Of a stretch of 64,000 bases of DNA, positions 14,284-62,200 are shown piece after piece. Every line of letters starts with the position of its first letter. Position 1 is the stretch's first letter. The stretch is taken from the NCBI GenBank assembly GCA_026874595.1, contig CM049313.1, positions 74,144,659 to 74,208,658 of the forward strand, in the 5' to 3' direction. Position numbers and translations under genes: made by a program. The notes under the pieces were generated by a model. That model saw only the letters and a program-made list of their open reading frames with translations, ran no database searches and was not told where the DNA came from. The DNA is from Sipunculus nudus. Its lineage: Eukaryota; Annelida; Sipuncula; Golfingiida; Sipunculidae.

Positions 14284-17200
14284 CTGTGACAAAGATAAAA
14301 CATATATATGTATACAAGCTGATACTTATTGCATAAAGGTCTCCACGATGTAACATTGTGATGTAGTGGCATGGTCAACTAATATTTACTCCCATCACCA
14401 AGGTTGACATTATGTCTGCCAGAGGTCTCTCAACTCTTTCATTTCAATTCTTTATTTGCATGAATCTTACACTTTATAAGCGAAAGAGTGTGTGGAAGGG
14501 ATGGGATCAATTTGCCACAATATTTGTTTTTTTGTAAGTAAGTCTACCTACATCCCTCCTATTCCTACGTCCTTAGTTTTGCTAGGCTCTTAATCTCTAG
14601 CTATGCATCATGTTAACCAACATAATTGAAAGTTCTTATAAATATATAGACCTTATAATTGTGTAAACATGATCTTCAATATACAAGACTTTGACACTGG
14701 ACACTCTGACCTGGCGTACCTGTTTGAGACGAGCGATCTCTTTGTTATCTGCATTCTTACTGGCATCATTTGTGATAAGTTTCACTCTGGATGCATATCT
14801 GTGAAATAGGAGGAAACATATGAACATCTAAATCTACAGACAAATAATATACTCTGATAGTTGATATTGACAATAGGAGACTGTGTGCAATAGGAAGACT
14901 AATAGCACAACTCTCCATACTTAATAAAACTAGCAAGTGTTCACTTTTGGCATTAAAAACATAAATGTTAATAATACACTGTTCTATAGATAACGACATA
15001 ATGACAGGTGAAAGGAATGATGACAGACTACAAAATATATGATAAGCTACCTTCAGAAAAACGTTTATACTGTAGCTCAGTTGCCTATCTTCAGTTATAT
15101 TATTTTTATGAAATGACCCTTACTGTTGGGACATAAAACTTGCTTATTAATTTTGTTTCCTTTTTGTCAGACAAGATTTTCAGTCAGTATAAAAAAGCAA
15201 CTGACACTGAATACACAATCTGCTAACATTATAGTATGAAACCAATACTATCAGTTATGCCATAAGAAACTAACAACACTGAAACATATGAGAAGGCATA
15301 TCAGAGGGATAAACTTACGTTAATGAAATGACTGTTTCATCTGTGTTGTAATCAGCTGGCGAGATGTTGACAAACATAAGTGTTTTTGCATTTCCACCAA
15401 GCGAGTCCTGCATCAACATTGTCAGTTTGTTGTTTCTGTACGGGATAAAGGCCTGCTCACTGGATAAAGCGGAGATGACGTCACCCAGTGCAGACAGCGA
15501 CTTGTTGATAGACATGGCTTCCTGAGAGTAAACACCATACATTCAATTTAAATACTGTTCAAGTGGAAAATGTGTATTTTAGTGGGGTTTTTTTTCAATA
15601 GACTATTTTACAATCCTTAATACAAATTATAAACAAAAGGACTATTTTGTGACAACAAGGGATGTGGACTTAAGAAATACAGTAAAACCTCGATATTATG
15701 ACTACCAATGGGACCTCATGATCAATAAAGTGGTTGTATTTTTATCCGTAGTGGTCTAATCGAGGTTTATATAAAGAGCAAAATAGAAACAGGACCATGA
15801 ACAAGTGATTGTTATTTTAAGGGGGTAGCTTAACTGAGGTGGTTTTAAGGAGAGGCTTCACTGTACTAGGGTTATATAATGAAAGGTGGTGTTGACTGAA
15901 AGTCATTGTGTCTCTAAAGTTGAATTTATTAGCTCAAATTAATATCTTCTGCCATAACATTATGCATGACGCTGGGGACGTCGCCAAGAAAATGTTGCAT
16001 TGCACAAGCTAAATTTTCAAATTTATTAAACTCTTTAAACCTTTTTTTTATACAAGTATAAATAATGCATTTTAGTATAACATCTAAATTGCACATTTAC
16101 CGTTCAAGTTTCTCAAGGTGAGAAAACAGTATATTTGCTCCAAAAAAGAGCATAAACAGAATCAGTGTATAACCAAAAATCCTATTTGAAGCAAAGCATT
16201 GATGCATGTTTCAAGTATTTGACAAGTATAAATACTAATTCTTTTACAGTTTATGCCAAGTGTTAAATAACAGTGATTCCAAAGAAACTGGCTTTGTATA
16301 CTGAATTCAAAAACTGCAGTACTTTCTGATCAATAACTTTCACATTTCTAAACAATAAAAAGTAGTATCAATGATGAAAGGGGGGGGGGGAGGGGTAAAA
16401 ATGTGTAGACAGATATCCTATTTTTATATTTTGAGTGTTTTTTTTTTATAAAAAAAAAAAAAGAATTGGATATTTTGATTAACATGTTCTGACCTTGAGT
16501 TGCTCTGCTGATGCTTGTGTTTTGGCAGCTCTCTCACTTCCTGCTAAATCTACCAGGCTGAGCTGAAAGATAACAAATAAATCAACTGTTTATTTTGATT
16601 ATCCAGCTAATAGGACCACTGAATGTTGTCATATTAGAACTGTCATCAGGGCTTTATTTTTAAGATGTTGATTTGCAGATTTTTCTTTCTCAAGTTCTAC
16701 AAGCACACAAAGCAAAAGGTATCTACATTAATTGGTTCAGAAAAAAAAATATGATACAACTGAATTTATGAAAGTCTCCCCTCCATTACCTATAAATCTA
16801 ACAATAATACTTTTAATTAACATAATGAACATTTGCTGGGTAAATATATATAATATACATTCTGAGAACAAGCAAAAAATAAGATGTGAGCTACATTCAT
16901 ACATGTAATGGTATGGTTTTTTTTTAAATTACCATTTTGAGTATTGCTGAAAAAGATAAAAAAAATAAAGTAGCATCAAGCAAACAAAAACAAAAGGTGT
17001 GATTCTCAGGCACCACCCACGTTGATTTTAACCCCCTGCATCAACAATTTTTATTTTGATTTTCATCTTATGATACAAAGATTATAATAATTTCATCAAA
17101 TAATACAATTTTGATAAGATTTCCTTTGTTATGTAGTGCTTAAACCTGTTTTGGAAAAAAAACTGTTATGATCATGGTTTTCCCTGATCATATGACATTT

Positions 17201-20200: not shown

Positions 20201-23200
20201 AGGACAAGAATAGTTTAACTAAGCATGTAAAAGCACAAATTATCAGAACAAAATAACAACAAAATTTTAGGGCTCAATCATTTATTTCTACTGAAAATCA
20301 AAATAAAATTTTTTAAGGGAGGGGGGGTCTCAAAATTTATGTGCCTGTTGCCTGAGAAACAAACTTTTTTGTTGCCTTAGGTATATCAAGCTTAAGAGAA
20401 CTTGTAGGTATTTAACAGTGGAAAGCTCACTTGTTTTCCTCCATGACCTCAAACAATCTGTTGAAAGCTCTGGGTGCAATACCCGGCTGAGTTTGTTCTT
20501 TGTCTCCAATCATGGTGTATGTCTTACCAGAACCTGTCTGTCCATACGCAAATATACACACGTTATACCCGTCCACAGCAGACTGGATCAGATTCTGCAA
20601 GGAAAACGTCATCAACATAATAGGTCTAACACAAAAATATTTCCTGTATGACCTCTGCTCCTTATCAGACCAACCCTTACTCTATTTTCTGTAGTATTGG
20701 TTCATCAATTACTCTTCCATTTACACTAGATCATTTCATGTATTATTTTAAACCACTACTGCCTTGTCTATTAAAGTTTCTCTTCTATATTCATTCAGAA
20801 ATAAATGGTATCTATGTGTAAGTTCAGTTACAGTCAGTTTAAGAGAGACAGTTTCATTAATATTTTAACACAATTTCACCAATGTTTTCATGGAAAATTG
20901 CACTCTTAAAACTACTTCAGTTCCAAAGTTATTTACTTGCTCGAACTACATCGTGTTACATTCCTTTTAACAACATAATTCTGGCTGTCACAGAAAAACT
21001 TCTATATTTTAATTTACAGTGGTACTGAATTATTGTCACACAACTCCTCTATAGCCACTACTAGGAAATGTCCTTTTTGGTTATTGATGATGCCAAATGT
21101 GTCTTAAGGGGAGCATTTTCTTTATAATTTCCCATAAATCCCGAGGCTTTTATCTATGAGAAACTACTTCAGTGTATCAAGGGGTGAACTCAGCACATGG
21201 AATGTCTAGCTGGACTTGTCCCATTGCAAGGATGAGTAGATAATATGCTACTTACAGTAAGACATGCTCTACAAATCTGACCCCTGGTATGAAAGTTAAA
21301 CTTACATTGGTATCCTCAAACACCTTTTCTTGGGAGTGCTCTGGCATGAAGACCTGGTCAAACTGAAACTCTTTAATTCCTCTCTGGGAGTCCACATTGA
21401 TCGTATACTCATCAGGAGACTTTACTACTGAGTGGTTGCCCTGAATGAAAGGTAAAAATGATTGAAAATCTCACAATGTCACACTGAAATCAGCTCAGGT
21501 TATTCCAAATAAACTAGTAGGCTGCATGTAAGCTAAACTCAGATTACAATTAAGATTAACTGACTGCATTACTAAAATCAAATGAAATTCACTTGAGTTG
21601 GTCCCTTGTCACATCTGAGCTACATTTTGAACTACACATATCATTACAATGTGCAAATAAAATAAAAGTCATAAGAGTCCACAAACAAAAGCATTACTTC
21701 ATCATACATGCAATTGAGCCAGGGAATCTACCACATTCTACTTCAGACTTAATGATGGTCTTACTATAAACATACAAGAAAACAGCAGCTTAAGAAACAA
21801 AAAATACATGTATGCCTGGTTGCTTCACAGTGCTTTGGTTTCAAACTATGCTTTATTACTATTTTAATCATATATTGTAACATACACATTTAATGAGCGT
21901 GATTTCTAAAAGACTTACCCTTTCGTTTTCAGATTTACTCATAGGCCTTGCCCTGCAGTACACACGGATCTTGCCTTTCATGTCCTCAACTATGTTGTAA
22001 TATTTCTTCCTGAGTACCTGTGTATTTATAAAATCTATTTTATTGCAGATGAGCAGCAAAGTAATGTGTATATTAATTGGTTGTCATAAAAAATTTTAGG
22101 CTGAATCTTAGACCATAGAAAATACTGTATTTCTAATTAAACTCTAAACATTCAAACCCTGAAAACTGCAAATCTGATGCATTAAAGGATAAAGTATAAT
22201 GCATGGCAAAAAAAAACAAAAGACAGAAATAATGAATGTTTCTGTAATGACACGTTCAGTGAATAAAGACCATACTGGTATAATCGGTCTTCTACAAACA
22301 AACAAAAAGGCAACCTTTAACAGTAAAGAGGCCTTAAGCCCATAAAACAGCTTAACAAACTGCCTTAATTAACTGTGAACTCTGAACTGAATAAAATACT
22401 GACAACTGATTCTATGTAGCATGACAATTAGTTTGCATAAGATTTTTACACAGTTAGGGTAATGCTCTTAATCCTTATGACGCAAAAAGTATATAACCAG
22501 AGCAATGCAAATGTGCATCATAAGCCCCTCATGTATCTGGTGACCTCTGACCTTATTAGATATGCATGAAATTTTATGAGAAGTTAATTCAGGTGAGAAA
22601 CCCTATTGGTAAATATGTATAATGAGTTTCATAAAAATCCATAGGTTATTTGGTAAGTCACCAAGGTGCCTCCAAAGTGCATTGACCTCTGACCTCATTA
22701 AATATGCATGAATTTTGCAGGAAATTGACTAAGGGTAGATATTTTATTGTTAAAATTTCTGATGAGATTGATAAAATCTTTCATATTCTTAGTATGTTAT
22801 CGTGGCGACACCACAAAGTAGCCAAGTGACCCCATGACCTTATTAAATATACATTGATGTTGCCCATAATCAAACTTGGGCGAAAGATAATCTGTTGGTA
22901 GTAGTTATGGTGAGTTTCATGGAAATCCATCAAAGTCCTGGTAAGTTATGGCGGTGACAAATAAGGTTAATAAATGAACAGTGGGTATACCATTATACTC
23001 ATGTCATATGAAGGGCGTAAAAAAAGTCAAAGGAAAAAGATGAAGAAGTCCATAACAGGATGCTACTAGATCTGCCACCTACCCTCTCACTGTTGAAGTT
23101 TTCTGCCAGAGTTTTATTTTCCTCAGCCAGTTTCTTCACCTCCTTTTCCATACTTTTAACCTTCTGAGCGGCCTCTACCCCTTCCTTGGCCATCACACCC

Positions 23201-26200: not shown

Positions 26201-29200
26201 AACACACCAAAAATCATGCCAGTATATGCAGGCATTGTGGAAAAAAGTCCATACATGTGCATTTTCCATAAAAATTTCTGTCTTTCATGAAATTTTCTAT
26301 GTTTAGGAGCCGTAAAACAATCAAAAGTAGGTCAACCGGGATGAAACGCGAACTCGATCTGTAACTGTCATTATCTGCCCACACATAAAAAATCAGGGTG
26401 GTATCTGCAGGCATTGAGGAAAAAAAGTAAGTACATATGCATTTGTTATGAAAATTTATATTTTTCATGAAACTTTCTATGTTCAGGAGCAGTCAAATGG
26501 TCAAAAGTAGGTCAACTGAGAGAAAACAAGAACTCGGTCTATAACTGGTCATTATCTGCCTACACACCAAAAATCAGGCCTGTATCTGCAGGCACTGCGA
26601 AAAAAAGTCCATACATATGCACCTTTTTATGAAATTTTCTTTGTTAGAGCACCGTCAAACGGTCAAAAATAGGTCAACTGGGACAAAACGTGAACTTGAT
26701 CTGTAACTGGTCATTATCTGCCCACACACCAAAAATCAGGCCAATATCTGCAGGTATTGTGAAGAAAAGTCTGTACAAGTGTATTTGTCATGAAAATTTA
26801 TGTTTTTCAAAACAGTCAAAAGTAGGTCAACCAGGACGAAATGCGAACTCAATCTGTAACTGGTTAATATCTGGCCACACATAAAAAATCAGGCCAATAT
26901 CTGCAGGCATTGCGAAAAAAAGTCTGTACATGTGTATTTGTCATGATATTTCATATTTTTCATGAAATTTTCTATGTTCAGGAGCCGTAAAACGGTCAAA
27001 AGTAGGTCAACCAGGACGAAACGCGAACTCGATCTGTAACAGGTCTATATCTGCCCACACACCAAAAATCAGGCCAATATCTGCAGGCACGGCAAAAAAA
27101 GTCTGTACATGTGTATCTTTCATGAATATTTCTATTTTTCATGAAATTTTCTATGTTTGTACAACAGTCAAAAGTAGGTCAACCGGGACGAAACGCGAAC
27201 TCGATCTGTAACTGGTCTATATCTGTCCACACACCAAAAATCAGGCCAATATCTGCAGGCACTGCGAAAAAAAGTCCGTACATGTGTATTTGTCATGAAA
27301 TTTCATATTTTTCATGAAATTTTCTATGTTCAGGAGCCGTAAAACGGTCAAAAGTAGGTCAACCAGGACGAAACGCGAACTCGATCTGTAACTGGTCTAT
27401 ATCTGCTCACACACAAAAAATCAGGCCAAAATCTGCAGGCACTGCGAAAAAAAGTCCGTACATGTGTATCTGTCATGAATATTTCTATTTTTCATGAAAT
27501 TTTCTAAGTTTAGGAGCCGTAAAACGGTCAAAAGTAGGTCAACCGGGACGAAACACGAACTAGATCTGTAACTGGTCTATATCTGCCCACACACCAAAAA
27601 TTAGGCCAATATCTGCAGGCATTGCGAAAAAAAGTCCGTACAACTGTTTGATTTCGGAATGACGGAAGGACGGAATGACGGACATGGGTAAAACTATATG
27701 CCCCGGCCACTTTGTGGCGGGGGCATAAAAATTCGTAAAAATTTGGAAAAATAGAGGTGGCGCACCCAGTCTGCAGAAACTGATGGAACACTTCATGATC
27801 AATATGTATGCAAAAAATCATGACCATCAGTGTTGTAGTTATTGAGATACTGCAGTTTTTGTATCAAATTTTTTTTGTTAACAGATGTCCACATTTTTAA
27901 AGGTTTCAAAAAAAGAGAAAAAAATTCGTAAAAAATAAAAAAATAGAGGTGGCGCACTCAGGCTGCAGAAACTGATGAAACACTCCATGAACAAGAGCCA
28001 TGCAAACAGTTATGGTGATCTCTGCATTAATTGTTCAGATACTTCAGCTTTTGTATCAAATTTTCCATTATTCTGAGCTGTACTTTGGAGTGCCATAGCT
28101 CAAAGGATATGGGTAACAGAGACCTAATTTCAGGTTTCCATGGAGACTTTTCATAGGTCTCTCACTGTGTCAAGAATGAAGATTCTAGGTCCAGTCTTTA
28201 CGATCTGTGCCATGTTAACAGATGACTGCATCTTTTAAAGGTCTCAAATATAGAGAAAACAATACGTAAAGAATCGAAAAATACAGGTGACGCCACCAGT
28301 CTGCAGAAACTGATGAAACATCTCATGATCAATATGTATGCTAAAAAACCATGACCATCAGTGATGTAGTTAATGAGATATTGAAGTTTTTGTATGAAAT
28401 TTTTGACTATTCTGGGGGGGTACTTTTGGGCTCCATAGCTCAAAGGATATGGGTAACAGAGACCTAATTTCTAGTTTCAATTGAGACTTTTCATAGGTCT
28501 CTCAGTGTGTAAAGAATGAAGATTCTAGGTCCAGTCTTTACGATTTGTGCCTTGTTAATAGATGTTCACCTTTTTAAAGGTCTCAAAAATAGAGAAAAAA
28601 ATTCATTAAAAAACTAAAAAAAATACAGGTGGCACCGCCAGTCTGCAGGAACTGATGGAACATCTCAAGATTAATATGTATGCTTAATACCATGACCATC
28701 AGTGATGTAATTAATGAGATATTGAAGTTTTTGTATGAAATTTTTTTACTATTCTGGGGGGTACTTTGGAGCTCCATAGCTAAAAGGATATGGGTAACAG
28801 AGACCTAATTTCTGGTTTCCATGGAGACTTTTCATAGGTCTCTCAGTGTGTCAAGAATGAAGTTTCTAGGTCCAGTCTTTACGATTTGTGCCTTGTTAAC
28901 AGATGTTCACATTTTTAAAGGTCTCAAAAATAGAGAAAAAAATTCATAAGGAATCGAAATACAGGTGGCGCCACCGGTCTGCAGGAACTGATGGAACATC
29001 TCATGATTAATATGTATGCCAAAAATCATGACCATCAGTGATGTAGTAAATGAGATATTGAAGTTTTGTATGAAATTTTTGACTATTCTGGGGGGTACTT
29101 TGGGGCCCCATAGCTCAAAGGATATGGGTAACAGAGACCTCATTTCTGGTTTCCAAGGAGATTTTTCATGGACCTCTCAGAATTTCAAGTTACAAGATTC

Positions 29201-32200
29201 TAGGTCCAGCGGTTGCGATTTTGTGCCAGGTTAACGGACGGACAGACGGACGACGGACAAAGGGTCATCGCTATAGCTTAGATGACTTACAGTCAGCTGA
29301 GCTAAAAACCAGAAACACTTTCTGATATTACCATTCTGGACCAAAATTTACAAGTTTCCATTTTGCAAGCGAAATTCCATCAAGCTACCCTGACATTTTC
29401 AAAGGATAAAAACATAGGGCTATTACACAACTTTCCCTTCATATCATTTAAAGTACTAAAGATAACAATTTAAAGATAACAACAGTTGGCATGGTTATCT
29501 GCATATGAATGAAAGCATCCTTACATTAAAACTCCTATGTTATTACTACATTATCTGGATTAAAGATTTTTTTTTTCAAAACATGTAGCAAGAAATAATG
29601 AAGAAATCAAACCCTCTCTATATCCTCTCAATTTTTTCTTTGACAGTTGAGATCATATCTTATTTCATAAAAGGATTTGAATTGAGACCTGCAGTTCTGT
29701 TGTTCCTTGCCTAATGCACTGGTCTACATTCTGTCCAAAAAGATTACAATATAATATTCATGATACTTACAGCGCCAGGCCTGGCAGAAGGTGCTCTTCC
29801 CTGAGCTCTTAGCCTGTTCTGTAAGAGCACACATTACATTCATTGATTCAAGTTAACATTATTGAATTTCAACCTAGCAAAGTAGAATATTTATTTACCA
29901 GGGATTAAAGGAACAAACACAAATATTTCACTATATAATTTTAAAAGCTTAAAACTAACCATGCCTGATTTCTTTTGTGTAACTTGGTTTGACCATTAAA
30001 TTTGGTAATGAAATTGGCCATTCATCTAGAACTTACAAATATCCTACGCATGCTCACACCTTTCTCAGTACAATTTAATCATAGCTGATTAATGTTTACA
30101 TTAAACAATGTATACATTACTAATTTCTAGGTATAAAAATATTAAAACAATTAGGACAATCCTGCACAGGTCCATGTATAGTCATTGACCAATAGACTGA
30201 AGACTTACCTGCAGTTCACTTATCTCTTGCTTGAGTTGCTTGTTGTTTTGCTCCAGGCTTGCCACCTTGGCCTTCAGCTCTTGGACCTGACCCTCGGTGT
30301 TTGCCATTTCTTTAAGATTAGCATCTTTCTCCTTCTCGGTTGCAGTCTAAGAATACCACATGGACACAAGAAGAATATATAAACTATACATTGTTATACA
30401 AAAACAAAAAAATATGTATGTAAAGCTTCCTCCATGAAACAGGAATCAGGAGAGAGCACTAACTGAAAAATCAAAGTGGCACCAACATTCATCAACAGTT
30501 ACATTTAATTGTGAAAATTAAGTTAAATTTGCACCTTTGCATCACTGAAATCTAATATCTCCCCAGTTTGTGATTTGTTTCTTTTTCAAACAATTCTTTC
30601 AAAAGAACCACTTAGAATAATATTTTTCATAAACATTTGCTCTGATGGCAGACGTGGCAGTAACACTTCACAGATAAGTTTACTATTCCTGTCAATTGTG
30701 TCCTATCCTCAATTTAGGTTGACACTTAAAATGCATCAAAATAGAAAACAAAAACTGGCTGGGAGGGTGGGAAGACCACTGCAACTAGTTTCAGAGAAAA
30801 TTACTCAGAGGAACTCAGAGAAAACTGTAGAAACCTCTGACATACATAATAAAATCCAGGCCTATTCCTTATGAAGGCATCATTTTGTTTTATCCATGAA
30901 GCAAGACTTTCAGTATTCAAGCTGTATGTATCTTCAGTACTCACCAGTTTTGCTTGCATGGCTTTGATTTCCTTCTTTGCATCTACTGGCATGTTTTCAA
31001 TTCTGGCTTTCTCTAGTTCAGCCACTCGTTCCTTGTTCTTTGCCAGAGCCTAGCAAAAGAATGATATTCCATAATCACAACATATTTCTTAGTATAATTT
31101 ATTTTTATTAATCACAAACAATTCTGTCGTGACACATGAATGATCAAACAGATTTGTGTCTTTGTTGTTTGTTATCATACTCGGTAGAATCAAGGCCTGA
31201 AATAATTTTTCCAAGACAGCATTAAATAAAGTGGCTACCTGATATTTAACCTTTTCTCACCTTGGAGAGGTTGTTGATCTCTGCCTGTAGCTTGCTTGTT
31301 GCTCCCTTCAGCTTGGCCTCAGCATCGGAGTTGACGTTATTTAAGTCGGCCTTCAGCCCCTTGATCTGACGACGCAGAGCCTCCAGCTCCTCCTTGGTCA
31401 TGTCATGAGCGAGTTTCTCCTGACGAAGCTCACTGGCCGCTGCTGCGCCCGCCTTAAAACAGCAAAATCAGTTTCAATACACCATTTTAAATATTACACA
31501 TTCATGATTTAAAGTTCCCCAGGAGGTGTAGTGCTTATTTTGAACAAATATGTTCAATTTACGATTGTGATCATAATGTTTTGTATATTGCAATGATCAT
31601 TTATCCTCATATACTACCAAGAGTGTGACCATGCTTTCAAATACCTTGATCCAGTGAACTTCTCTATATCATAATAATGAATAAGGCAATTGAACCAACC
31701 AAATGGCTCACCGAAATTTGTTTTGTAAGGATGTCTGGTGCATCTTTTGAGGCATCAAGAATCTAACCAATGAAATAAGCCTGTTCCCTTTCTGGTAGGG
31801 CTGAAAGGAGTACTCGAGTACTCGAGTCCGGGTAATACTTACCGAGTACTTTAGTCCGAAATTTGGTCTCGAGTACTCGTGTATGTACATGCATATCTGC
31901 ATATAACTGCAAATTTATGGGCAGTCTGTAGGCCTATTTATTCCTCAGTTATCATAACCTGGCATAGGGCTCTAAACATATGCTAGTCGACCAGTCAAAT
32001 AGGTAGATAAAACAGAAGTCTTGACTCTTGTTATGACATATATCTATTCCTTCGTTGGGATAAAGTTAAGCCGTCACAAAGTCAAAGTTATGCATATTTT
32101 GCATGGATAAACAGATGTCTGTTTTATCTTTAAAGCGTTACCAAGGTAAAGAGTACTCGTGTCCGAGTCGGGGAATGCCTATCGGGAACTCGAGTCCAAA

Positions 32201-47200: not shown

Positions 47201-50200
47201 GAAAAACTGTATTGGTTAATATTTATAATGACTTTCATGAAGATTGGTCATATTTTTGGCTAGTGAAGTCTGGTGATCTCTGACCTCATTAAACATGCAT
47301 GGACTTTAACTGGAACTAAACTTAATAATATATTGGTTAATATTTTTGAGTTTCATTAAAATCCATCATAGTCCTGATAAGTTATTGTGGCAATACCACA
47401 AAGAAGCCTCATGACCTCTGACCTCATTAGATATGCGTGGATTTTGCCTGTAATTGCACTCGGGCATATAATTTATTGTTCACAAGTTATGGAGAGTTTC
47501 ATGAAGATCCATCAAATCCCTGGTAACAGTGGTGAGTTATCACAGCGACACAAAAACTAATGGACTGACAACACGACGGTCAGACCATGGGTAGACCATA
47601 ATTCATCCTGTTATAGATGGGTGTATATTTATAATAAAACCACTGCATCAATGCATCACTGGTTTCTTACTTTGATAGTTTGGTTCAGCTTCTGAATGTC
47701 AGCATCCTTCTGTTTAAGCTGGTTCTCTAGGTCAGTCAAGGCTTTCCTTAAGTCCTAAACAGAAAATGTCATATTAGTGAATATTAACATTCAAAAACAA
47801 AGTCTTCTCTGCTACAGAAGATTTTCCTAATTATTTAACCATTTGTATATAAGATATTCCCTCTGACTATGCCAAGAGTTAATGATATAACAAAAAAAAT
47901 TCAAATATCAGTATGTTTGTCTGTCATATATAATTGATAAATGAACATGATAACCACACCAATTGATCATTAAGGTTTGTACTCCAACCTCTGCATCTTC
48001 TGCTGTTACTGCTACAGCAGCGACTCCACTCAGCTCAGCAACTTTGGCCTTGGCATCCTCCAACTCTCTCTCCAGCTCTGTGATCTTGTTGTCTTGTTGC
48101 TGCAAATAATAAAGCAAAAAATGTACAAGAAATAAGATTAAGGTTCCAAATATGTTTATTATGAAAATTACCTGTAAAATCTACAATCACCCACTGATTA
48201 ATAATATATACTTGTCTAAATTATAAAAAAAAATTAATAAATTCTGTCAAATTTGTCAAAATAAAAAGTATTTCATTGTTCCTTTCCAGTAAATCAAGAC
48301 TGCATTATTCAAGGATATTTTTTAGCAAGGCCTAGGTATGATCCGGCTATACAGGCTACAATAATAGTTAGTTTATTGAAAGATGATTTCATCAAAACTC
48401 TTAGATGGTTGCTCTAAATTCTAAGCTGTTACCATGACAGTACACTTGGAAGTGTTGACAACATTACTTAATGCTAGTTTTTAGTTACAGAGTGCTGGAC
48501 TCCAAGTAAATGGATACATCAGAACTCCTTACAATTTGTAACTAAATAACTGTTAACTTACCTCAGTTTTATTGGTCAGAGATTCCTTATCAGTCTCCAG
48601 GTCTATGATTTTGTTCTCCAACTCTCCAATGTTTGCCTCTTCACCATCTAATTCCATAAATAATACAATCATTATCATACATGCACATGTGAGGCAATAA
48701 ATAAACTGAAAAGTGAAAGCACTGTGTTTCAGATATCAAGGTTATTTTTTTTAAATCAATGAAATTTAATACTGAAAATCAGATAACTGATTTGCAGGAT
48801 GTCTGACAGCAAAATAATCTAGCCAAAATGAGGCAGTTCTATGTCACGACTCAAGTGAGCCTTAGTGGCCCTCCAAGCAGTTAAAGAATAAACTTTCTCT
48901 GTGGCTGGCTCAGAAATATGAATTTTCTTATAGCGGAGATGAAAATTAATTCTGATCAAGATATAATGTTTAGTTGTACCATAAGACCCTATGATGTACA
49001 TTATCATGCTTTCCATTTCCTTTAATTTATCTTCAAGGTTCTGATACTGTCTCAGCTATATTAAGTTTACTATTTTTAAAGGAGAATTACTCATGACTGA
49101 TATATAATTCAAGAGATGGCTAAAAAATATTAAGTTTCTATTACATTTAAGAATATGCTATAACCAACATGTACTATTGGTTGTGCCATGTGACCCTCTG
49201 ACATACATCATCAAGCCTACCTTCTCCCTTGAGTTTATCTTTCAGCTTCTGGTACTGCTTCATCATCTTCTTCATGTCCTTCTCCATCTCCTTCTTCTCA
49301 TCTTCCTTATCCTGCAGCTCCTTCTCCAAGGTCTATCATCAAAAGAGAACAAACATCACGGTCAACACCTTACATCTTAAGACATTACATACCAGTGGTA
49401 AAAGTGCAATATATAATCCAATATATAATATAAGTGTTTATGAACGACTATAGTTTCAGGGAGTCCAACCTAGTTTCGCAATATCAGGCTAGACAAGTGT
49501 ATTTCCTCTTTCATCATACTTACAAATTTGAGAAACATTTTCTTTTAAGGTCACTGATATGACTTGAAAAATGTCCACTTTGTTGATGGATATGTTTTCT
49601 TAAGGAAGTGTAGACTTGTAACTGTTATCTGCTCCGTAACAATCCAGCCTTCAAATACAGATACAGATTCAGCCTACAGATAAACAGATATTGCCTGTGT
49701 TTTTCTCTACAATAGTTCATATCAGACAAACAGGAATCCATGAATATTAATTTAAAAAAGTCTTCAGTAAATAAAGCAGTAATGAGTATGCCACAAAGCA
49801 TTTGGTTTTAACTAAAAGTAGGTCCTAAGTATTTTGATCAAAGTACTAAAACAGCTAGTTGATTTCAAGGAGATGTTAAAGTTACTCAAACTATCTTAGT
49901 GAAGAATCACCCACCTGTTTGGCCAGACTCTCTTTATCAAAGTCTTCTCTGGTCTGTCTCAGCAGGGCCTCCAGCTCAGCTTTGGCTCGTCTCAGAGCTT
50001 CAACATCCTCAGCACTGGCAGCACCAACAGCAGCTCCACTGAGCAGGGCCAGCCGCTGCTTAGCTTCATCTAACTCCTGATCCAGCTTGTCTATCTTCTC
50101 TTCTTGTTTCTACAAATTGTACATGATAGATTGAATCAAATCAATACAGTATGCAGGACATGGCACAGTGTTGTTTAGGCCATATACTTCAAAATTATTC

Positions 50201-53200: not shown

Positions 53201-56200
53201 CGAACCCACGATTTCCCGGCTTTGAGTCCTGTGCTCTACCCCTGAGCCTCAGAAGCCAGTTCAATTCTGTTTGGGTTCATAGCACTTGTGAAGGCCTACT
53301 CTAACCAAAGGATTTTGCCTTTCAATTTGACACAGGAGATTGAAGACACATAAGACTACAGGTTTTTACATCAGTCTTTAACAGGACTGCATGTAAAATA
53401 TCTAAACAAAGCTTCTGACATTATATTTGATAAACGTGCCCCCCTTCGATCAGGAGTAAACATTCCATATATGTTCTAACTGACCTCAATATCCTCCTGA
53501 GAAGTTCCTGCCGATGCCACAGCGGCCGTGACCCCCAGCTGACTTGCCTTCTCCTTGGCCTCCTCAAGGTCAGCCTCTAGGGAGGCAATCTTCTCTTCCA
53601 GGCGCTATTTAAAACAAAAATAAGTGGAAAACTACGCAACCAGTCGTCAAGTTTTATTATTTCATAATAAAATGCTGGGCAGATGTTAATGATATGTGAT
53701 TGACAGGCATATGCCACATATACAAAAGACAATTTTTTTTATTCAAAGTGAAACATGATCTAACACAATGATCACATCACAATGATGACTTATTCAAAAT
53801 GAACAAAACCATCTGATGCCTACTAATATTCCCCCTGATTTCTTCATTATTACATGTTTAAACAGCCTGAGTGGCAACCACAAACTGGTTTGTCTATTTA
53901 TTAAGTGACAATGAAGACTCCTCACTGCAAAATGGGAATTAAATAAATCTGCCCTAAGATCTTTATCTTTATATATTTAAATATGTAGATCAGACATATA
54001 CTGGCCACGAGTCACATAAACTGGATAAATTCCTACGACATACATAGAACTGACAGATATATGTTCTACATACAATGGTCATAGATTATCTGACGGATTA
54101 TACTCACACATATTTACCACAGTAAGGAAGAGGTTACCTGAACTTTAGCCTTCAGAGCCTGGTTATCAGAGTCCAGGTCAGATATGTGGTTTTCCAGGTC
54201 CTCTATCTTGTCTTCTGTACCAGCAGCCTCCTCCAGGATGGCATCTTTGGCAGCAGACTGTGTCTCTGTGTCAGAAGAAAAAAAAGAATATGAAAGACAA
54301 TCAAGTTTATCAACAATTTTATTTTGCTGGATAATCTGGAATTTCTTAGAATTTCTGTAGAAGATTATATTTTATTTTATTTTCAAGATCATATTTGATG
54401 TATAGAAGTTTTTTATAACCATATATGTTACCCTCTGATTTTAATCTAATTTTAAATTAAATTTTACTTTTGAATATCATATTTTTGATTTGATCATATT
54501 TGTTGAGCCTTTTACTACAGATATACTTTATCTTTATGCATGTTCAAAGTAAATGCTGATGCAACTATCCTGTCCATTGAAGACTGTTAATTACAAGCAA
54601 GGCTTTATTTGAGTTTATGTCTGAGCACTGTGTCTACTTACCACCAACAGTTTTTTCTTGTTTATGTTTCAGATCAGGCACAAGTCCTGTCTTCATCATC
54701 GTCAAGGCAACCACCAGGTTATCCTGGTCCTTCATGTTTTTCTTACTCTTCCCTTGTTCATCGTAAAGTAACCGTCCATCACTGTCCATCTCCCTACATG
54801 CGTAATACAATATGATCAGGATGACCTAATAATCACAGACTTCATGATCTTGTCAAAAATCAACTTTGTGCAGTTCCAATGAGCAAATCTGATTCTCCAA
54901 GTTAATGAAACAGTGAATACAGACCTTATGTATAATCAGATTATCATGACATAATGAAAAAACATAGATTCCAATATTTTGTCAAATGGAACTGTTCCAA
55001 TGGGCAAATAGTGTCTCCCCCCCCCCCCCCCCCCCATAGTCATGATATAATGACCATAATATGCCCTTGCACATGACAAACCTTGCATAGCAATACACAA
55101 CAAAAGTTGCCATTGAACATACAGGTAAGACAATGAAACAATTAAATATCTGAAAATACAATCACAGGTAGGGCAATATGTCGGAGAGTAGTAAAGGATG
55201 GAGTCAAGCAGATGGATTTGGCTTAGATCAAATTCAAGTCAGCAGCTGCTACCTGGACCGAGTTAAAATTGATGAATTTGGGCAACATGTTAAGATGCGA
55301 GTCAAAAAGGGGAAAGAACAGCCTACAGGAAAACATGACGGTATAAGGCTATCTTTACATAATTCTTTGAACATGGATCTATATACAACATATTCTGAAT
55401 TTCTTATCAATGTTATATCATTATGAAAAATATATAGAACTGAAAGGTGATGCAATTTCTTGTACAGCCACAAGCATACAGACCTGTCTGCCTCTGTTGG
55501 TTCTTTTCCATTCTCTTCAGCCCAGCCCAGCTCCCAGGACTCATACTCCTTGCTTGCTTTCTCTACATGTCTCTTTGCCTTGGTTTGGTTTGTCTCAGCC
55601 TCCCTCAGCCTGTCACCCACCATCTCTGATGCAGGCAAAACAAGTCGGTGGATTTCATGTACCTGCAATGCCAATCTGTTCTTGTAATTTTCTAGTTTGT
55701 AAATGACTTCATGAATACATGCTGTGTTGTTCTGATTGCAATTGGGTAAAATATTATCAGTAAATAACATGTTTATCACTTCATCAGATTTGTGAGGTAG
55801 TCTTTTTAATTTCCATTTTTTTCTTTCTCTACATGTCTCTTTGCCTTGGTTTGGTTTGTCCCAGCCTCCCTCAGCCTGTCACCCACCATCTCTGATGCAG
55901 GCAAAACAAGTCGGTGGATTTCATGTACCTGCAATGCCAATCTGTTCTTGTAATTTTCTAGTTTGTAAATGACTTCATGAATACATGCTGTGTTGTTCTG
56001 ATTGCAATTGGGTAAAATATTATCAGTAAATAACATATGTTTATCACTTCATCAGATTTGTGAGGTAGTCTTTTTAATTTCCATTTTTTTCTTTGTCAAA
56101 TCATGAAATATGCTACATAATTGAAGACATAATATAATATGCATCTTCTCCCCAAGATATGCTACAATTAAGCAAACACACAAGTCACAGTTCCCCCCAG

Positions 56201-59200
56201 TCACAGATTCTTGAAATTATACAGACTTTCACTAACATCACCAGACTATGGAAACTTTCCTATAATTTTCCTTGTATCCTCCACCCAACAAGGCCGTGTG
56301 TGTGTATCTGTGTACTTTTGTGTTTGGTCTGTAGGTGTGTGTGACTGTGTGAGACTGTCTTTGTGTGTGGATATGTACTTGTCAATGTGTGTAACTATGT
56401 GTGTGACTGTGTATGTGTGATAGGTTTTGATATTCAAATATTATGTGATCACTGGCCATAAATGTTGGGGCCATCCCTCTATCTGACCTGCTGTATGACT
56501 ACAGGTAGGATCTCGTTATAGTGGTCCTCCTTGGCGGTCATCTTCTGTTTGAGTTTGGCGTGGGCTTTCAGCAGCTTCTTGATGTCTCTCTCCATCATCT
56601 TCTTCTCCTTCTCTAGCTGCTTTATCCTTGCCTCATAATCCTGAAAAAAATAAATAAAAAATCCAAATATCCAATATCTCTACTTCATATCATCATTGGA
56701 TCAGCACTGGCTCAAATTATCAATAAAGCAAGGGCAGAAAGCTCTGCTCAGTGTCTGCTTGTCTGCCAGATGGATGTTTCAAAAGTTGTCCATATGTTAT
56801 TTTCATTATGTTTATATTAATGGCATGACTAGTCAACAGGTGAAGATTAATTGGCAGAGTACTTCTCTCTATCACATATTAACACTTGACATACATATTT
56901 AATATGTAGGCTAATTGCATTTTGTGGCTGGTCCAGTTGAGAACACCTGTCACCTAATGTAACAACCAGGGTAGAATTCTGGTACAGCAGGCCTTAGATT
57001 TGTTGTTCCACATATTTTACATGATTAAATTTTAATCATAAAATTTATATATTTTGTGCATCATCACAGTGCCTTCTAGCGACATGAACTTGTATGATTA
57101 CCTGAAATTATCTGTAAATTTTACATTCTAAAGGATAAATACATTAAGGCCTTTTGTATATCTTTGGACAAGTCTTAAGGTCCTCTCTCGTTCCTGCCTG
57201 CCTTACCTCCTGCTCCTCTGTCGTTCCTGCCTGCCTTACCTCCTGCTCCTCTCTCGTTCCTGCCTGCCTTACCTCCTGCTCCTCTCTCGTTCCTGCCTGC
57301 CTTACCTCCTGCTCCTCTCTCGTTCCTGCCTGCCTAACCTCCTGCTCCTCTCTCGTTCCCGCCTGCCTTACCTCCTGCTCCTCTCTCGTTCCCGCCTGCC
57401 TTACCTCCTGCTCCTCTCTCGTTCCTGCCTGCCTTACCTCCTGCTCCTCTCTCGTTCCCGCCTGCCTAACCTCCTGCTCCTCTCTCGTTCCCGCCTGCCT
57501 TACCTCCTGCTCCTCTCTCGTTCCCGCCTGCCTTACCTCCTGCTCCTCTCTCGTTCCTGCCTGCCTTACCTCCTGCTCCTCTCTCGTTCCCGCCTGCCTT
57601 ACCTCCTGCTCCTCTCTCGTTCCCGCCTGCCTTACCTCCTGCTCCTCTCTCGTTCCTGCCTGCCTTACCTCCTGCTCCTCTCTCGTTCCTGCCTGCCTTA
57701 CCTCCTGCTCCTCTCTCGTTCCTGCCTGCCTTACCTCCTGCTCCTCTATCGTTCCTGCCTGCCTTACCTCCTGCTCCTCTCTTGTTCCTGCCTGCCTTAC
57801 CTCCTGCTCCTCTCTCGTTCCTGCCTGCCTTACCTCCTGCTCCTCTCTCGTTCCCGCCTGCCTTACCTCCTGCTCCTCTCTCGTTCCTGCCTGCCTTACC
57901 TCCTGCTCCTCTCTTGTTCCTGCCTGCCTTACCTCCTGCTCCTCTCTCGTTCCTGCCTGCCTTACCTCCTGCTCCTCTCTCGTTCCTGCCTGCCTTACCT
58001 CCTGCTCCTCTCTCGTTCCTGCCTGCCTTACCTCCTGCTCCTCTCTCGTTCCTGCCTGCCTTACCTCCTGCTCCTCTCTCGTTCCTGCCTGCCTTACCTC
58101 CTGCTCCTCTCTCGTTCCTGCCTGCCTTACCTCCTGCTCCTCTCTTGTTCCTGCCTGCCTTACCTCCTGCTCCTCTCTCGTTCCCGCCTGCCTTACCTCC
58201 TGCTCCTCTCTCGTTCCTGCCTGCCTAACCTCCTGCTCCTCTCTCGTTCCCGCCTGCCTTACCTCCTGCTCCTCTCTCGTTCCTGCCTGCCTTACCTCCT
58301 GCTCCTCTCTCGTTCCCGCCTGCCTTACCTCCTGCTCCTCTCTCGTTCCCGCCTGCCTTACCTCCTGCTCCTCTCTCGTTCCTGCCTGCCTTACCTCCTG
58401 CTCCTCTCTCGTTCCTGCCTGCCTTACCTCCTGCTCCTCTCTCGTTCCTGCCTGCCTTACCTCCTGCTCCTCTCTTGTTCCTGCCTGCCTTACCTCCTGC
58501 TCCTCTCTCGTTCCTGCCTGCCTTACCTCCTGCTCCTCTCTCGTTCCTGCCAGCCTTACCTCCTGCTCCTCTCTCGTTCCTGCCTGCCTTACCTCCTGCT
58601 CCTCTCTCGTTCCTGCCTGCCTTACCTCCTGCTCCTCTCTCGTTCCTGCCTGCCTAACCTCCTGCTCCTCTCTCGTTCCCGCCTGCCTTACCTCCTGCTC
58701 CTCTCTCGTTCCCGCCTGCCTTACCTCCTGCTCCTCTCTCGTTCCTGCCTGCCTTACCTCCTGCTCCTCTCTCGTTCCTGCCTGCCTTACCTCCTGCTCC
58801 TCTCTTGTTCCTGCCTGCCTTACCTCCTGCTCCTCTCTCGTTCCTGCCTGCCTTACCTCCTGCTCCTCTCTTGTTCCTGCCTGCCTTACCTCCTGCTCCT
58901 CTCTCGTTCCTGCCTGCCTTACCTCCTGCTCCTCTCTCGTTCCCGCCTGCCTTACCTCCTGCTCCTCTCTCGTTCCTGCCTGCCTTACCTCCTGCTCCTC
59001 TCTTGTTCCTGCCTGCCTTACCTCCTGCTCCTCTCTCGTTCCTGTCTGCCTTACCTCCTGCTCCTCTCTCGTTCCTGCCTGCCTTACCTCCTGCTCCTCT
59101 CTCGTTCCCGCCTGCCTTACCTCCTGCTCCTCTCTCGTTCCCGCCTGCCTTACCTCCTGCTCCTCTCTCGTTCCCGCCTGCCTTACCTCCTGCTCCTCTC

Positions 59201-62200
59201 TCGTTCCCGCCTGCCTTACCTCCTGCTCCTCTCTCGTTCCCGCCTGCCTTACCTCCTGCTCCTCTCTCGTTCCTGCCTGCCTTACCTCCTGCTCCTCTCT
59301 CGTTCCCGCCTGCCTTACCTCCTGCTCCTCTCTCGTTCCCGCCTGCCTTACCTCCTGCTCCTCTCTCGTTCCTGCCTGCCTTACCTCCTGCTCCTCTCTC
59401 GTTCCTGCCTGCCTTACCTCCTGCTCCTCTCTCGTTCCCGCCTGCCTTACCTCCTGCTCCTCTCTTGTTCCCGCCTGCCTTACCTCCTGCTCCTCTCTCG
59501 TTCCTGCCTGCCTTACCTCCTGCTCCTCTCTTGTTCCCGCCTGCCTTACCTCCTGCTCCTCTCTTGTTCCTGCCTGCCTTACCTCCTGCTCCTCTCTTGT
59601 TCCTGCCTGCCTTACCTCCTGCTCCTCTCTTGTTCCTGCCTGCCTTACCTCCTGCTCCTCTCTTGTTCCTGCCTGCCTTACCTCCTGCTCCTCTCTTGTT
59701 CCTGCCTGCCTTACCTCCTGCTCCTCTCGTTCCTGCCTGCCTTACCTCCTGCTCCTCTCTTGTTCCCGCCTGCCTTACCTCCTGCTCCTCTCTCGTTCCT
59801 GCCTGCCTTCCCTCCTGCTCCTCTCTCGTTCCTGCCTGCCTTACCTCCTGCTCCTCTCTCGTTCCTGCCTGCCTTACCTCCTGCTCCTCTCTCGTTCCTG
59901 CCTGCCTTACCTCCTGCTCCTCTCTCGTTCCTGCCTGCCTTACCTCCTGCTCCTCTCTCGTTCCTGCCTGCCTTACCTCCTGCTCCTCTCTCGTTCCTGC
60001 CTGCCTTACCTCCTGCTCCTCTCTTGTTCCCGCCTGCCTTACCTCCTGCTCCTCTCTCGTTCCCGCCTGCCTAACCTCCTGCTCCTCTCTCGTTCCTGCC
60101 TGCCTTACCTCCTGCTCCTCTCTTGTTCCTGCCTGCCTTACCTCCTGCTCCTCTCTTGTTCCCGCCTGCCTTACCTCCTGCTCCTCTCTCGTTCCTGCCT
60201 GCCTAACCTCCTGCTCCTCTCTCGTTCCCGCCTGCCTTACCTCCTGCTCCTCTCTCGTTCCTGCCTGCCTTACCTCCTGCTCCTCTCTCGTTCCTGCATG
60301 CCTTACCTCCTGCTTGTCCTGCAGCTCCTTCTTCAGGTCGTTCTCTGTCTGTCTCAGCTGCTTCTCCAGCTCAGCCTTCATCTCAGCGTGTTCTACTGGA
60401 TCCACACCATTCTGTGGACACAAACAAATATACTCAGGTTTCCTCACACACCCTTAATACAATCAATGTGTAATATTTAACATATAAATATATGAATATG
60501 TAGCTAGGCATGACACTGGCCTGAGGGACAAAAGAGACCAACAAATCACTTGTCTTTGAGGAAATTAAGTAGTCTGTTATAACTGACTAGCTACCTATTC
60601 TTACTTATTGAGATCAACCTCAATGGGTGATTCAATGAGTGAGCTGTAATTTAAAGCCTTGCACATTTATAACAAAACATTTTAATATGTGAATCAGCGT
60701 GAAAAGAAGAAACATTTGTTTAGTAAGAGTCACTTCAGAAAAGTTCATGTGTTTCTTGACTGCACTTCAGAACCTTTGTATGCCCTGACTACAAAAAGTA
60801 CAGAGAAATTTTCAAGAATTATCAAGTGCACAAACTTACAGCAAAGTCTCAAACAAAAGTACCAAAAAATAACATTTTTCATTTGAATAACTTGATGAAA
60901 GCTAAGTGATGAAAGGTTGGTTTCTTATTGATTTTGTATTTGATATTACCTACCTTTGCAGTGGTTGCCACAGCAACCGCACCTGCTCCAGCACCTGCTC
61001 TTCGCAACTGATCTTCTAGCTCCTGATTGGCTGCCATCAACTTGTTGATTTCAGCCTTGGCTTGAGCCAGACGGCTCTTGAGCTGGGTCTGTTGGCTCTG
61101 TAGAGTTGTGGCTCTGTTCTTAAGTGCCATGACTTGTTTACGGAGAGCGTCCAACTCAGCTTGGGTCATCTCGAGCTGAGCAATAACCTCGGGATCTGGT
61201 ACTCTCAGCTGTAAAAATATAACATTATATCCCTTAATCTATATTTATCAAATGTGATAACACAGATTTATACAGCTAATTAGAGTTATTTATCAGATCT
61301 GTGTCTGTGATAAAATGCTACAAATTTTACAATGCAAAGCAACTAAGTGCTGCTATATTAATACTTAATAATACTAATCAATAGCTACCATATCATTACA
61401 GGAGACGTATATTTTTAACTCAGTTATAGAAACTGAATGCACAGGTCATTTGAGACTATCTGGTTAAAACAGAGTTATATTCATTTTCCAAATAAACCAC
61501 ATTAAAAATAAACTTTTCTGGGACCAGAAAAACAAGTTAAAAGAAACAGGTAAAACCATGCATTGTTTTCATAATCCGATTAGAACACTGACCTCAACGA
61601 CCTTGACCTCAGGGTCAGGGATGACTACAGGTAGTGGCTTGACCACTGGAGCATCAGGTGTCTCGCCACGCTTCAGTTTCTCCAGGGTATCCACCTTGAT
61701 ATTAAGAGCATCTATCATTCCATTGGCCTCATCCAGGGATGTGATAGTCTCTTTCATGGAGTCAGTGCTAATATAAATGACATGAAAATAAAATTTAATC
61801 TCAAGGCTAAATCGATTGGTACATCATTATCAGAAATAAAGCATGAAATAAAAGCAGGAAGATGGATGAGACTGACACTGTTGATGATACCAGATTATAA
61901 ACATGATCCCTGTGTTCTTAAGCTTGTGTCACTTATGAAATTTCACAAAAAAATATGCACAATGAGGTTAACAGGTTTGTTTTATTCCTGAGATTGCACA
62001 AAAGAAATGACTATCATGTCTTTATCTGCACTGTGGAAAGTTCTTTAGAATTAAGTGAGCAACAAAAATAACATGAATGGAATATTCTTGCTTCACATCA
62101 CTGACAGGATTTCCTCTTTGGCTGACTGGCCACCAATCTTACAGTACATTATGCGGGGAATGAGCCTTTTAGGGATCTGTCTGTTACTTTAATTACTGAA

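What the first reader, a model, noticed from the sequence alone, without database searches (positions are those of the whole stretch)
57180..60411. About 95 tandem 5' splice sites founded on a kinesin exon end
The 33-bp satellite begins exactly at the donor of kinesin exon 5. Nearly every unit repeats both the exon end (CAGGAG) and the donor (GTAAGG), behind a GAGAGGAG stretch of exonic-enhancer type. Units are 33 = 3 x 11 bases, so use of any donor in the first 17 or so units adds whole 11-residue blocks ([11 protein letters not shown]) without a frame change. The array could act as a ladder of competing donors, as a U1 snRNP sink, or as a source of length-variable tail isoforms. Homogeneous units imply recent expansion and probably allele length variation.
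Basis: partly seen in the sequence, partly recalled or inferred. Interest (0 to 1): 0.85.

Follow-up and report, generated by a model that had tools for sequence, protein, structure and literature searches.

The report
Repeated exon end: a splice-site minisatellite
A 33-letter piece straddling the end of one kinesin exon has been copied 95 times in a row, so the gene carries 88 intact copies of the same splice start signal; this is an extreme case of a known oddity ("mirage" repeats, described in amphioxus) that seems to occur at many exon edges in this animal's genome and gives a natural test of how cells choose among identical splice sites.

Summary
On the minus strand, 95 head-to-tail units (94 of 33 bp, one of 31 bp; window 57181-60314) start 8 nt inside a 105-nt coding exon and fill about 85% of its intron; 88 of 95 units keep GAG|GTAAGG. 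The gene is a kinesin with a C-terminal motor, closest in the PDB to KCBP. Donors 1-18 are in frame with the next exon, 15 of them intact; later donors shift the frame.

It is not a one-off. Of 20 other donor-motif arrays fetched, 18 could be judged and 14 begin, by eye, at a coding exon end; 5 of the 14 have homology support (PKA-RI, ABCC, FANCD2, DOCK, SLC22). Arrays at exon starts exist too (MMS19). None of 11 reversed-motif control arrays carries a donor at an exon end. This matches amphioxus "mirages", reported not to disturb splicing, and resembles human IFI6.

Most likely donor 1 does most of the splicing and the array leaves with the intron. In-frame ladder isoforms are possible but not specially supported: 3n periods (7 of 15 exon-end arrays) do not exceed chance. 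No RNA data were available.

The parts
57181..60314 (-). 33-bp minisatellite, 95 units; 88 keep the donor core GTAAGG; units read from 60314 downwards
   Evidence: TRF, unit table, donor table
60307..60411 (-). coding exon whose last 8 nt are the start of the array (peptide [35 protein letters not shown])
   Evidence: flanked by CACAG acceptor and GAG|GTAAGG
60305..60306 (-). GT of donor 1, the presumed authentic donor
   Evidence: use inferred
59723..59753 (-). unit 18, 31 bp: 2-nt loss that breaks the frame for all later donors
56488..56640 (-). next exon ([34 protein letters not shown]...), phase 0, acceptor TTTTTTTCAG
55557..56094 (-). 266-bp tandem duplication, 2 copies, 98%: part of the following exon (probably its start) plus upstream sequence; a possible second boundary duplication in the same gene
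   Evidence: exon start not proven, the frame stays open upstream of the putative acceptor
20421..20603 (-). kinesin motor exon (PF00225 positions 62-122, E 2.7e-19)
   Evidence: genome coordinates converted
15321..15527 (-). kinesin motor exon (PF00225 positions 249-318, E 1.5e-23)
   Evidence: joined motor peptide best PDB match 1sdm, E 6.3e-57
49891..50109 (-). paralogous coiled-coil exon ([16 protein letters not shown]|) that shows the same junction without an insert
   Evidence: aligned by eye

Best explanation
The array is a 'mirage' minisatellite. A short tandem duplication spanning the exon end and its 5' splice site (33 bp: 8 nt of exon plus 25 nt of intron) arose, then expanded by slippage or unequal exchange to 95 copies. 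Copy 1 is still the authentic exon end; the other 94 lie in the intron. In transcripts the exon is most likely defined by its acceptor and donor 1, which gives a normal 105-nt exon and is transcribed first, and the array is removed with the intron. The downstream donors are mostly silent U1-binding decoys that may add a few 11-residue in-frame insertions. SHOWN: anatomy, frame table, donor complementarity, recurrence at other exon boundaries. INFERRED: origin by tandem duplication, intronic removal, predominance of donor 1, minor isoforms.
For: Anatomy. Recurrence: of 20 fetched donor-motif arrays, 18 assessable, 14 start at a coding exon end by eye. Homology support for 5 of the 14: PKA-RI alpha E 8.6e-25, ABCC2 9e-9, FANCD2 6e-5, DOCK Pfam 6.6e-5, SLC22A3 1e-3. 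Exon-start arrays: MMS19 5.4e-10 (L029), and by eye L026 and L030. Controls: of 14 reversed-motif loci listed, 11 were fetched; 0 of 11 carry a donor at an exon end by eye, 1 of 11 (L044) abuts one on the other strand (Fisher 5e-5, or 4.8e-4 if L044 counts). Locus density 25 in 396 Mb against 8 in 498 Mb for the reversed motif, while the single 8-mers differ only 1.25-fold. Later copies do not lose the donor preferentially: GT substituted at 3.5% per site and the 7-nt core at 3.2%, against 4.7% for the rest (12 arrays). Amphioxus mirages: same architecture, splicing reported undisturbed, length-unstable (PMC3087553, passages; PMC3902484, passage).
Against: No RNA evidence; donor use is inferred. 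In IFI6 downstream repeat donors are used, so donor-1 predominance need not hold. The exon calls were by eye and not blinded: L006 is unclear, L004, L014 and L015 show no exon, L017 and L022 could not be judged. A mechanical Pfam scan of the 17 donor-array frames of 20 aa or more gave only 3 hits under 1e-3 (DOCK, ABC, FancD2), against 0 of 13 control frames scanned. Arrays were chosen by the AGGTAAG motif, which biases both the exon share and the donor-conservation figure; in L007 and L023 the donor core is more substituted than the rest of the unit. By raw match counts one donor pattern (AGGTAAGT, 687) barely exceeds its reversed control (538).
Confidence: 0.7

Rival explanations
1. Donor ladder: several of donors 1-18 are really used, giving a series of kinesin tails with 0-17 extra blocks of [11 protein letters not shown]; donors beyond 18 feed nonsense-mediated decay, so array length tunes dose.
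For: 18 donors in frame and open, 15 intact; the intact donors are equal in U1 complementarity (-10.1); IFI6 precedent with three mRNA species (PMC4526556, passage).
Against: Other exon-end arrays show no significant excess of 3n periods (7/15) and three of six other 3n arrays have early in-frame stops; amphioxus mirages are reported to splice normally; the unit peptide contains Gly and few coiled-coil core residues (my reading, no prediction run).
Confidence: 0.2
2. The array has a selected regulatory role as a U1 snRNP platform: many bound U1 particles shield the intron from premature polyadenylation or slow the removal of this intron.
For: 88 intact U1-complementary sites in 3.1 kb.
Against: Similar arrays occur at unrelated exons, and at exon starts, which fits a general mutational process; conservation could not be tested.
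Confidence: 0.06
3. Ordinary minisatellite by chance: arrays start anywhere and this one merely overlaps an exon end. (Not exclusive of donor-1 splicing.)
For: Tandem arrays are common in the stretches read; the amount of exon inside the array varies freely between loci (roughly 5-45 nt).
Against: Per-site excess at donor-like 8-mers about 12-fold (rough: locus ratio 3.9, CI 1.7-10, P = 0.002 against 1.25).
Confidence: 0.15
4. Assembly artefact (copy number inflated or collapsed).
For: A 3.1-kb near-identical tandem array is a known assembly hazard; no reads were available.
Against: 80.9-Mb contig; 13 distinct unit types in an irregular order; similar arrays elsewhere.
Confidence: 0.04

Closest known systems
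Amphioxus 'mirage' minisatellites (Adh3, globins BflGb6/BflGb9, TnC, PGBD5)
   [quoted passage not shown] both exon ends and exon starts affected; several genes; unit of 33 bp lies in the 10-72 bp range given for Adh3 (PMC3087553; PMC3902484; passages read).
   Different: Far more copies here (95; the two BflGb6 haplotypes have 6 and 3 units). Whether the host is a cephalochordate is not settled: the genome is 1.43 Gb and a GFP search found nothing, but no control rang there either. No RT-PCR here.
Human IFI6 (6-16) donor minisatellite
   Same: Minisatellite at a 5' splice site whose units offer donors.
   Different: There two downstream units are used as donors, giving three mRNA species (PMC4526556, passage). 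The original paper (Turri 1995) is not held and was not read; only its title was seen.
Internal tandem repeats at human exon-intron boundaries
   Same: Repeats at exon edges that can alter splicing or make introns (PMC2812944, passages).
   Different: On average 30-bp units repeated 4 times, in genes of segmental duplications.
Intron gain by tandem duplication
   Same: Duplication of a splice-site-bearing segment.
   Different: Here an existing intron is enlarged; no new intron is shown (PMC4974935, search listing only).

Membership tests
Mirage minisatellite | tandem repeat spanning an exon-intron boundary | tested here: met
   array starts 8 nt inside the exon and runs into the intron
Mirage minisatellite | many units carry the AG/GT splice signal | tested here: met
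   88 of 95 intact GTAAGG, 94 of 95 keep GT
Mirage minisatellite | recurs in several genes, at exon ends and exon starts | tested here: met
   14 of 18 donor-motif arrays at exon ends by eye; among 9 acceptor-motif arrays, MMS19 (homology) and two more (by eye) at exon starts
Mirage minisatellite | does not disturb regular splicing | not testable with these tools
   no RNA
Mirage minisatellite | allelic and somatic length instability | not testable with these tools
   one haplotype; 97% unit identity fits recent turnover
IFI6-type donor minisatellite | downstream units used as donors in mRNA | not testable with these tools
   no RNA; 18 donors would be in frame
C-terminal-motor kinesin, KCBP-like (host gene) | motor domain downstream of the coiled coil | tested here: met
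   PF00225 exons at 20421-20603 and 15321-15527 on the same strand; the link of all exons in one transcript is assumed
C-terminal-motor kinesin, KCBP-like (host gene) | motor sequence closest to KCBP | tested here: met
   best PDB matches are 1sdm (potato KCBP by recall; 'kinesin heavy chain-like protein' in the table) and 3h4s KCBP
C-terminal-motor kinesin, KCBP-like (host gene) | calmodulin-binding C-terminal helix | not tested
   -

The most novel reading that the evidence does not exclude
Exon-intron boundaries are preferred birthplaces of minisatellites in this genome (about 12-fold per site at strong donors, by a rough estimate), so that many genes carry ladders of identical splice sites: 14 exon-end cases seen by eye among 18 arrays, and about 67 extrapolated genome-wide for one donor 8-mer alone (from the rates). 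The kinesin gene, with 88 intact identical donors of which 15 are in frame, is the longest ladder found here at an identified exon, and its array length sets a spectrum of tail isoforms.
Probability: 0.3. Interest if true: 0.8.

Novelty: new member of a known kind. Interest (0 to 1): 0.58.

Why it matters
How the spliceosome chooses among identical, closely spaced donors has mostly been asked with short engineered transcripts (my recall). Here nature offers 88 intact identical donors in one intron, and shorter ladders in other genes; long-read cDNA of one animal would read out donor choice against position directly. It would also show how widespread exon-boundary minisatellites are beyond the amphioxus genes in which they were described, what feeds them, and whether they make length-variable proteins or only large introns. 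For annotation, such arrays may lead gene predictors to add false repeats to exons (inference).

Tried and rejected
Other copies of the array: none found in the genome apart from a 70% match on C72. Paralogous or second-haplotype gene: none found. Pfam on coiled-coil exons and PDB on the two exons joined: only weak coiled-coil noise. Higher-order block structure: not significant (58/500). Preferential loss of donors in later copies: not seen (L009, L018, L019 gave too few aligned copies and were dropped). Acceptor pattern TTTNCAGG: 2618 matches against 1855 reversed, too overdispersed to quantify; 9 listed loci were fetched: 3 lie at exon starts by eye (L026, L029, L030), L034 probable, L032 not assessable, 4 not. 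Raw match counts were dropped as a measure because one array gives many matches; AGGTAAGT (687) against reversed (538) shows little excess by that count. L013 as ACSL and L016 as Rab are recall; L013 gave only an unrelated weak Pfam hit (0.009), and the exon-frame peptide of L016 was too short to search (the frame scanned was another one). L035 as LINE-ORF1-like is recall; no Pfam hit. DNA-PKcs for L023 is weak (E 0.61, although all six hits are that protein).
Full report
WHAT IS THERE. The window lies at G000:C8:74144659-74208658 of a 1.43-Gb unnamed eukaryotic assembly. On the minus strand a 105-nt coding exon (60307-60411) ends CAGGAG|GTAAGG. From 8 nt before that junction, the sequence repeats 95 times down to 57181: TRF gives period 33, 95.0 copies, 97% matches. 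Splitting it unit by unit gives 94 units of 33 bp and one of 31 bp (unit 18), and 13 distinct unit types. The donor core is GTAAGG in 88 of 95, GTTAGG in 6 (units 4, 8, 51, 64, 87, 91) and GGAAGG in 1 (unit 16). By these coordinates the array takes 3,126 nt of the 3,666-nt intron. The next exon starts at 56640 in phase 0. No second copy of the array was found apart from one 70% match on C72, nor a second copy of the exons.

THE GENE. PF00225 motor exons sit at window 20421-20603 and 15321-15527 on the same strand, downstream of the coiled-coil exons. The joined motor peptide is closest to kinesin-like calmodulin-binding protein structures: 1sdm 6.3e-57 (KCBP by recall) and 3h4s 2.7e-54, well ahead of the third hit at 2.1e-38. 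So the motor is C-terminal and the array lies in the N-terminal tail or stalk. That all these exons form one transcript is assumed. A paralogous exon pair at 49.2-50.1 kb has the same junction, [38 protein letters not shown] against [39 protein letters not shown] here, equal in length to one residue; a further paralogous second exon lies at 51.8 kb (by eye). The coiled coil is therefore continuous when donor 1 is used.

THE LADDER CLAIM. Joining each donor to the next exon gives 18 of 95 open and in frame; 15 of those 18 have GTAAGG. From donor 19 on the frame is +1 and the reading meets a stop (only part of these 77 donors was printed, the rest follows by arithmetic). U1 pairing is -10.1 kcal/mol for GTAAGG, -6.9 for GTTAGG and -6.3 for GGAAGG; the 12 other predicted donors of the gene that I scored range from -4.3 to -12.7 (U1 end typed from recall). 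The claim is anatomically sound. Whether the donors are used cannot be told without RNA.

A GENOME-WIDE CLASS. Searching G000 for three donor motifs at short spacing showed many arrays (listings cut at about 100 places). I fetched 20 of the listed loci on C1-C4 with 2.5 kb on the 5' side, chosen without sight of their flanks. The array start was found for 18; L017 and L022 were dropped. In 14 of 18 a coding exon runs into the array and ends at its first donor, by eye: L005, L007-L013, L016, L018-L021, L023 (in L021 and L023 the first donor is GTATGT). L004, L014 and L015 show none; L006 is unclear. Homology supports five: PKA-RI alpha (L012, 8.6e-25), ABCC2 (L010, 9e-9), FANCD2 (L019, 6e-5), DOCK (L008, Pfam 6.6e-5, below the curated cut-off), SLC22A3 (L005, 1e-3). 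DNA-PKcs (L023) is only suggestive (0.61). A mechanical version, scanning the longest frame running into the array, gave Pfam hits under 1e-3 in 3 of 17 donor-array frames (the 18th, L004, had 8 aa) and in 0 of 13 control frames scanned (the control set had 22 frames, of which 9 were not scanned). In the PKA array the unit is the last 30 nt of the exon plus the first 8 nt of the intron; in the ABCC array about 38 nt of exon plus about 5 nt of intron.

CONTROLS. The reversed motif GAATGGAC, treated the same way, gave 8 array loci on C1-C5 (498 Mb) against 25 loci for CAGGTAAG on C1 to C4:88.7 Mb (396 Mb), counted by hand from the listings. The single 8-mers number 46,239 and 37,054 genome-wide. 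So the locus ratio is 3.9 (CI 1.7-10) against 1.25 expected (P = 0.002), or roughly 12-fold per excess site. This is rough: it treats the excess 8-mers as real donors, and does not correct for array density in genes. Of 14 reversed-motif loci listed, 11 were fetched; none has a donor-bearing unit at an exon end by eye; one (L044) abuts a 123-aa open frame on the other strand. Fisher 14/18 against 0/11: 5e-5; against 1/11: 4.8e-4. Exon starts are affected too: of 9 acceptor-motif arrays fetched, L029 (MMS19, 5.4e-10), L030 and L026 lie at exon starts by eye, L034 probably; L026's exon has an array on each side. In the kinesin gene itself the exon after next carries a 266-bp two-copy duplication of coding and upstream sequence (55557-56094).

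DOES THE CLASS LOOK SELECTED? Fifteen exon-end arrays (14 plus kinesin) have 3n periods in 7 (P = 0.20). Of the six 3n arrays other than kinesin, three hit a stop within the first two units (L018, L019; in L021 in a variant second unit), two stay open for several units before a stop (L010, L011) and one stays open throughout the 500 nt read (L008). The GT of later copies is changed at 3.5% per site and the 7-nt core at 3.2%, against 4.7% for the rest of the unit, over 12 arrays, a figure biased by selection on the motif; in L007 and L023 the core is the more variable part. There is thus no sign that extra donors are purged, and none that frame is maintained. This favours a mutational origin and a spliceosome that copes.

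COMPARISON WITH WHAT IS KNOWN. PMC3087553 (passages) describes 'mirages' in amphioxus: minisatellite-like duplications of exon-intron boundaries in Adh3 (10-72 bp units) and two globins, at either boundary, length-unstable and even somatically variable at Adh3, with data suggesting regular splicing. PMC3902484 (passage) adds TnC and PGBD5. PMC4526556 (passage) states that human IFI6 uses downstream repeat units as donors, citing Turri 1995, which is not held. So the kind is known. What I did not find in print in the searches is a genome-wide survey, or an array with this many identical donors; the library lacks most subscription papers.

VERDICT. The best reading is a very long mirage minisatellite, spliced mainly from donor 1 (0.7). 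The ladder of isoforms is a real but secondary possibility (0.2). The wider point, that exon boundaries of this genome often carry such arrays, deserves a proper annotated census.

Noticed in passing
window 55557-56094: 266-bp tandem duplication (98%) covering part of a kinesin exon ([23 protein letters not shown]...) and sequence upstream of it: probably an exon-start boundary duplication in the same gene.
   Followed up: partly
L026 (G000:C1:2333142-2334442): An exon (VTVAGTYVFKDRNGWPV...SPVPQ) with an acceptor-type array (23 bp) upstream and a donor-type array (30 bp, CCACAAAGGTAT) downstream.
   Followed up: partly
G000 contigs C60, C61, C62, C66, C72, C74, C75, C89, C123: COX1-family genes open in the standard code; neighbours on C123, the only one read, look bacterial by eye: probably symbiont or associated bacteria in the assembly.
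   Followed up: partly
L017 (G000:C1:1647460-1650460), minus strand: Array of TTTTGTTTTATAGGAGGTAAGACTTGGTG-like units that carry an acceptor-like and a donor-like signal 3 nt apart.
   Followed up: no
L044 (G000:C10:38692683-38695307), minus strand: A reversed-motif control array abuts the end of a 123-aa open frame that reads ...FYTGYSQ and then a possible donor, although its unit lacks the donor.
   Followed up: partly
window 26141-29235: Large tandem arrays with 153-180 bp and 341 bp periods between exons of the same gene region.
   Followed up: no
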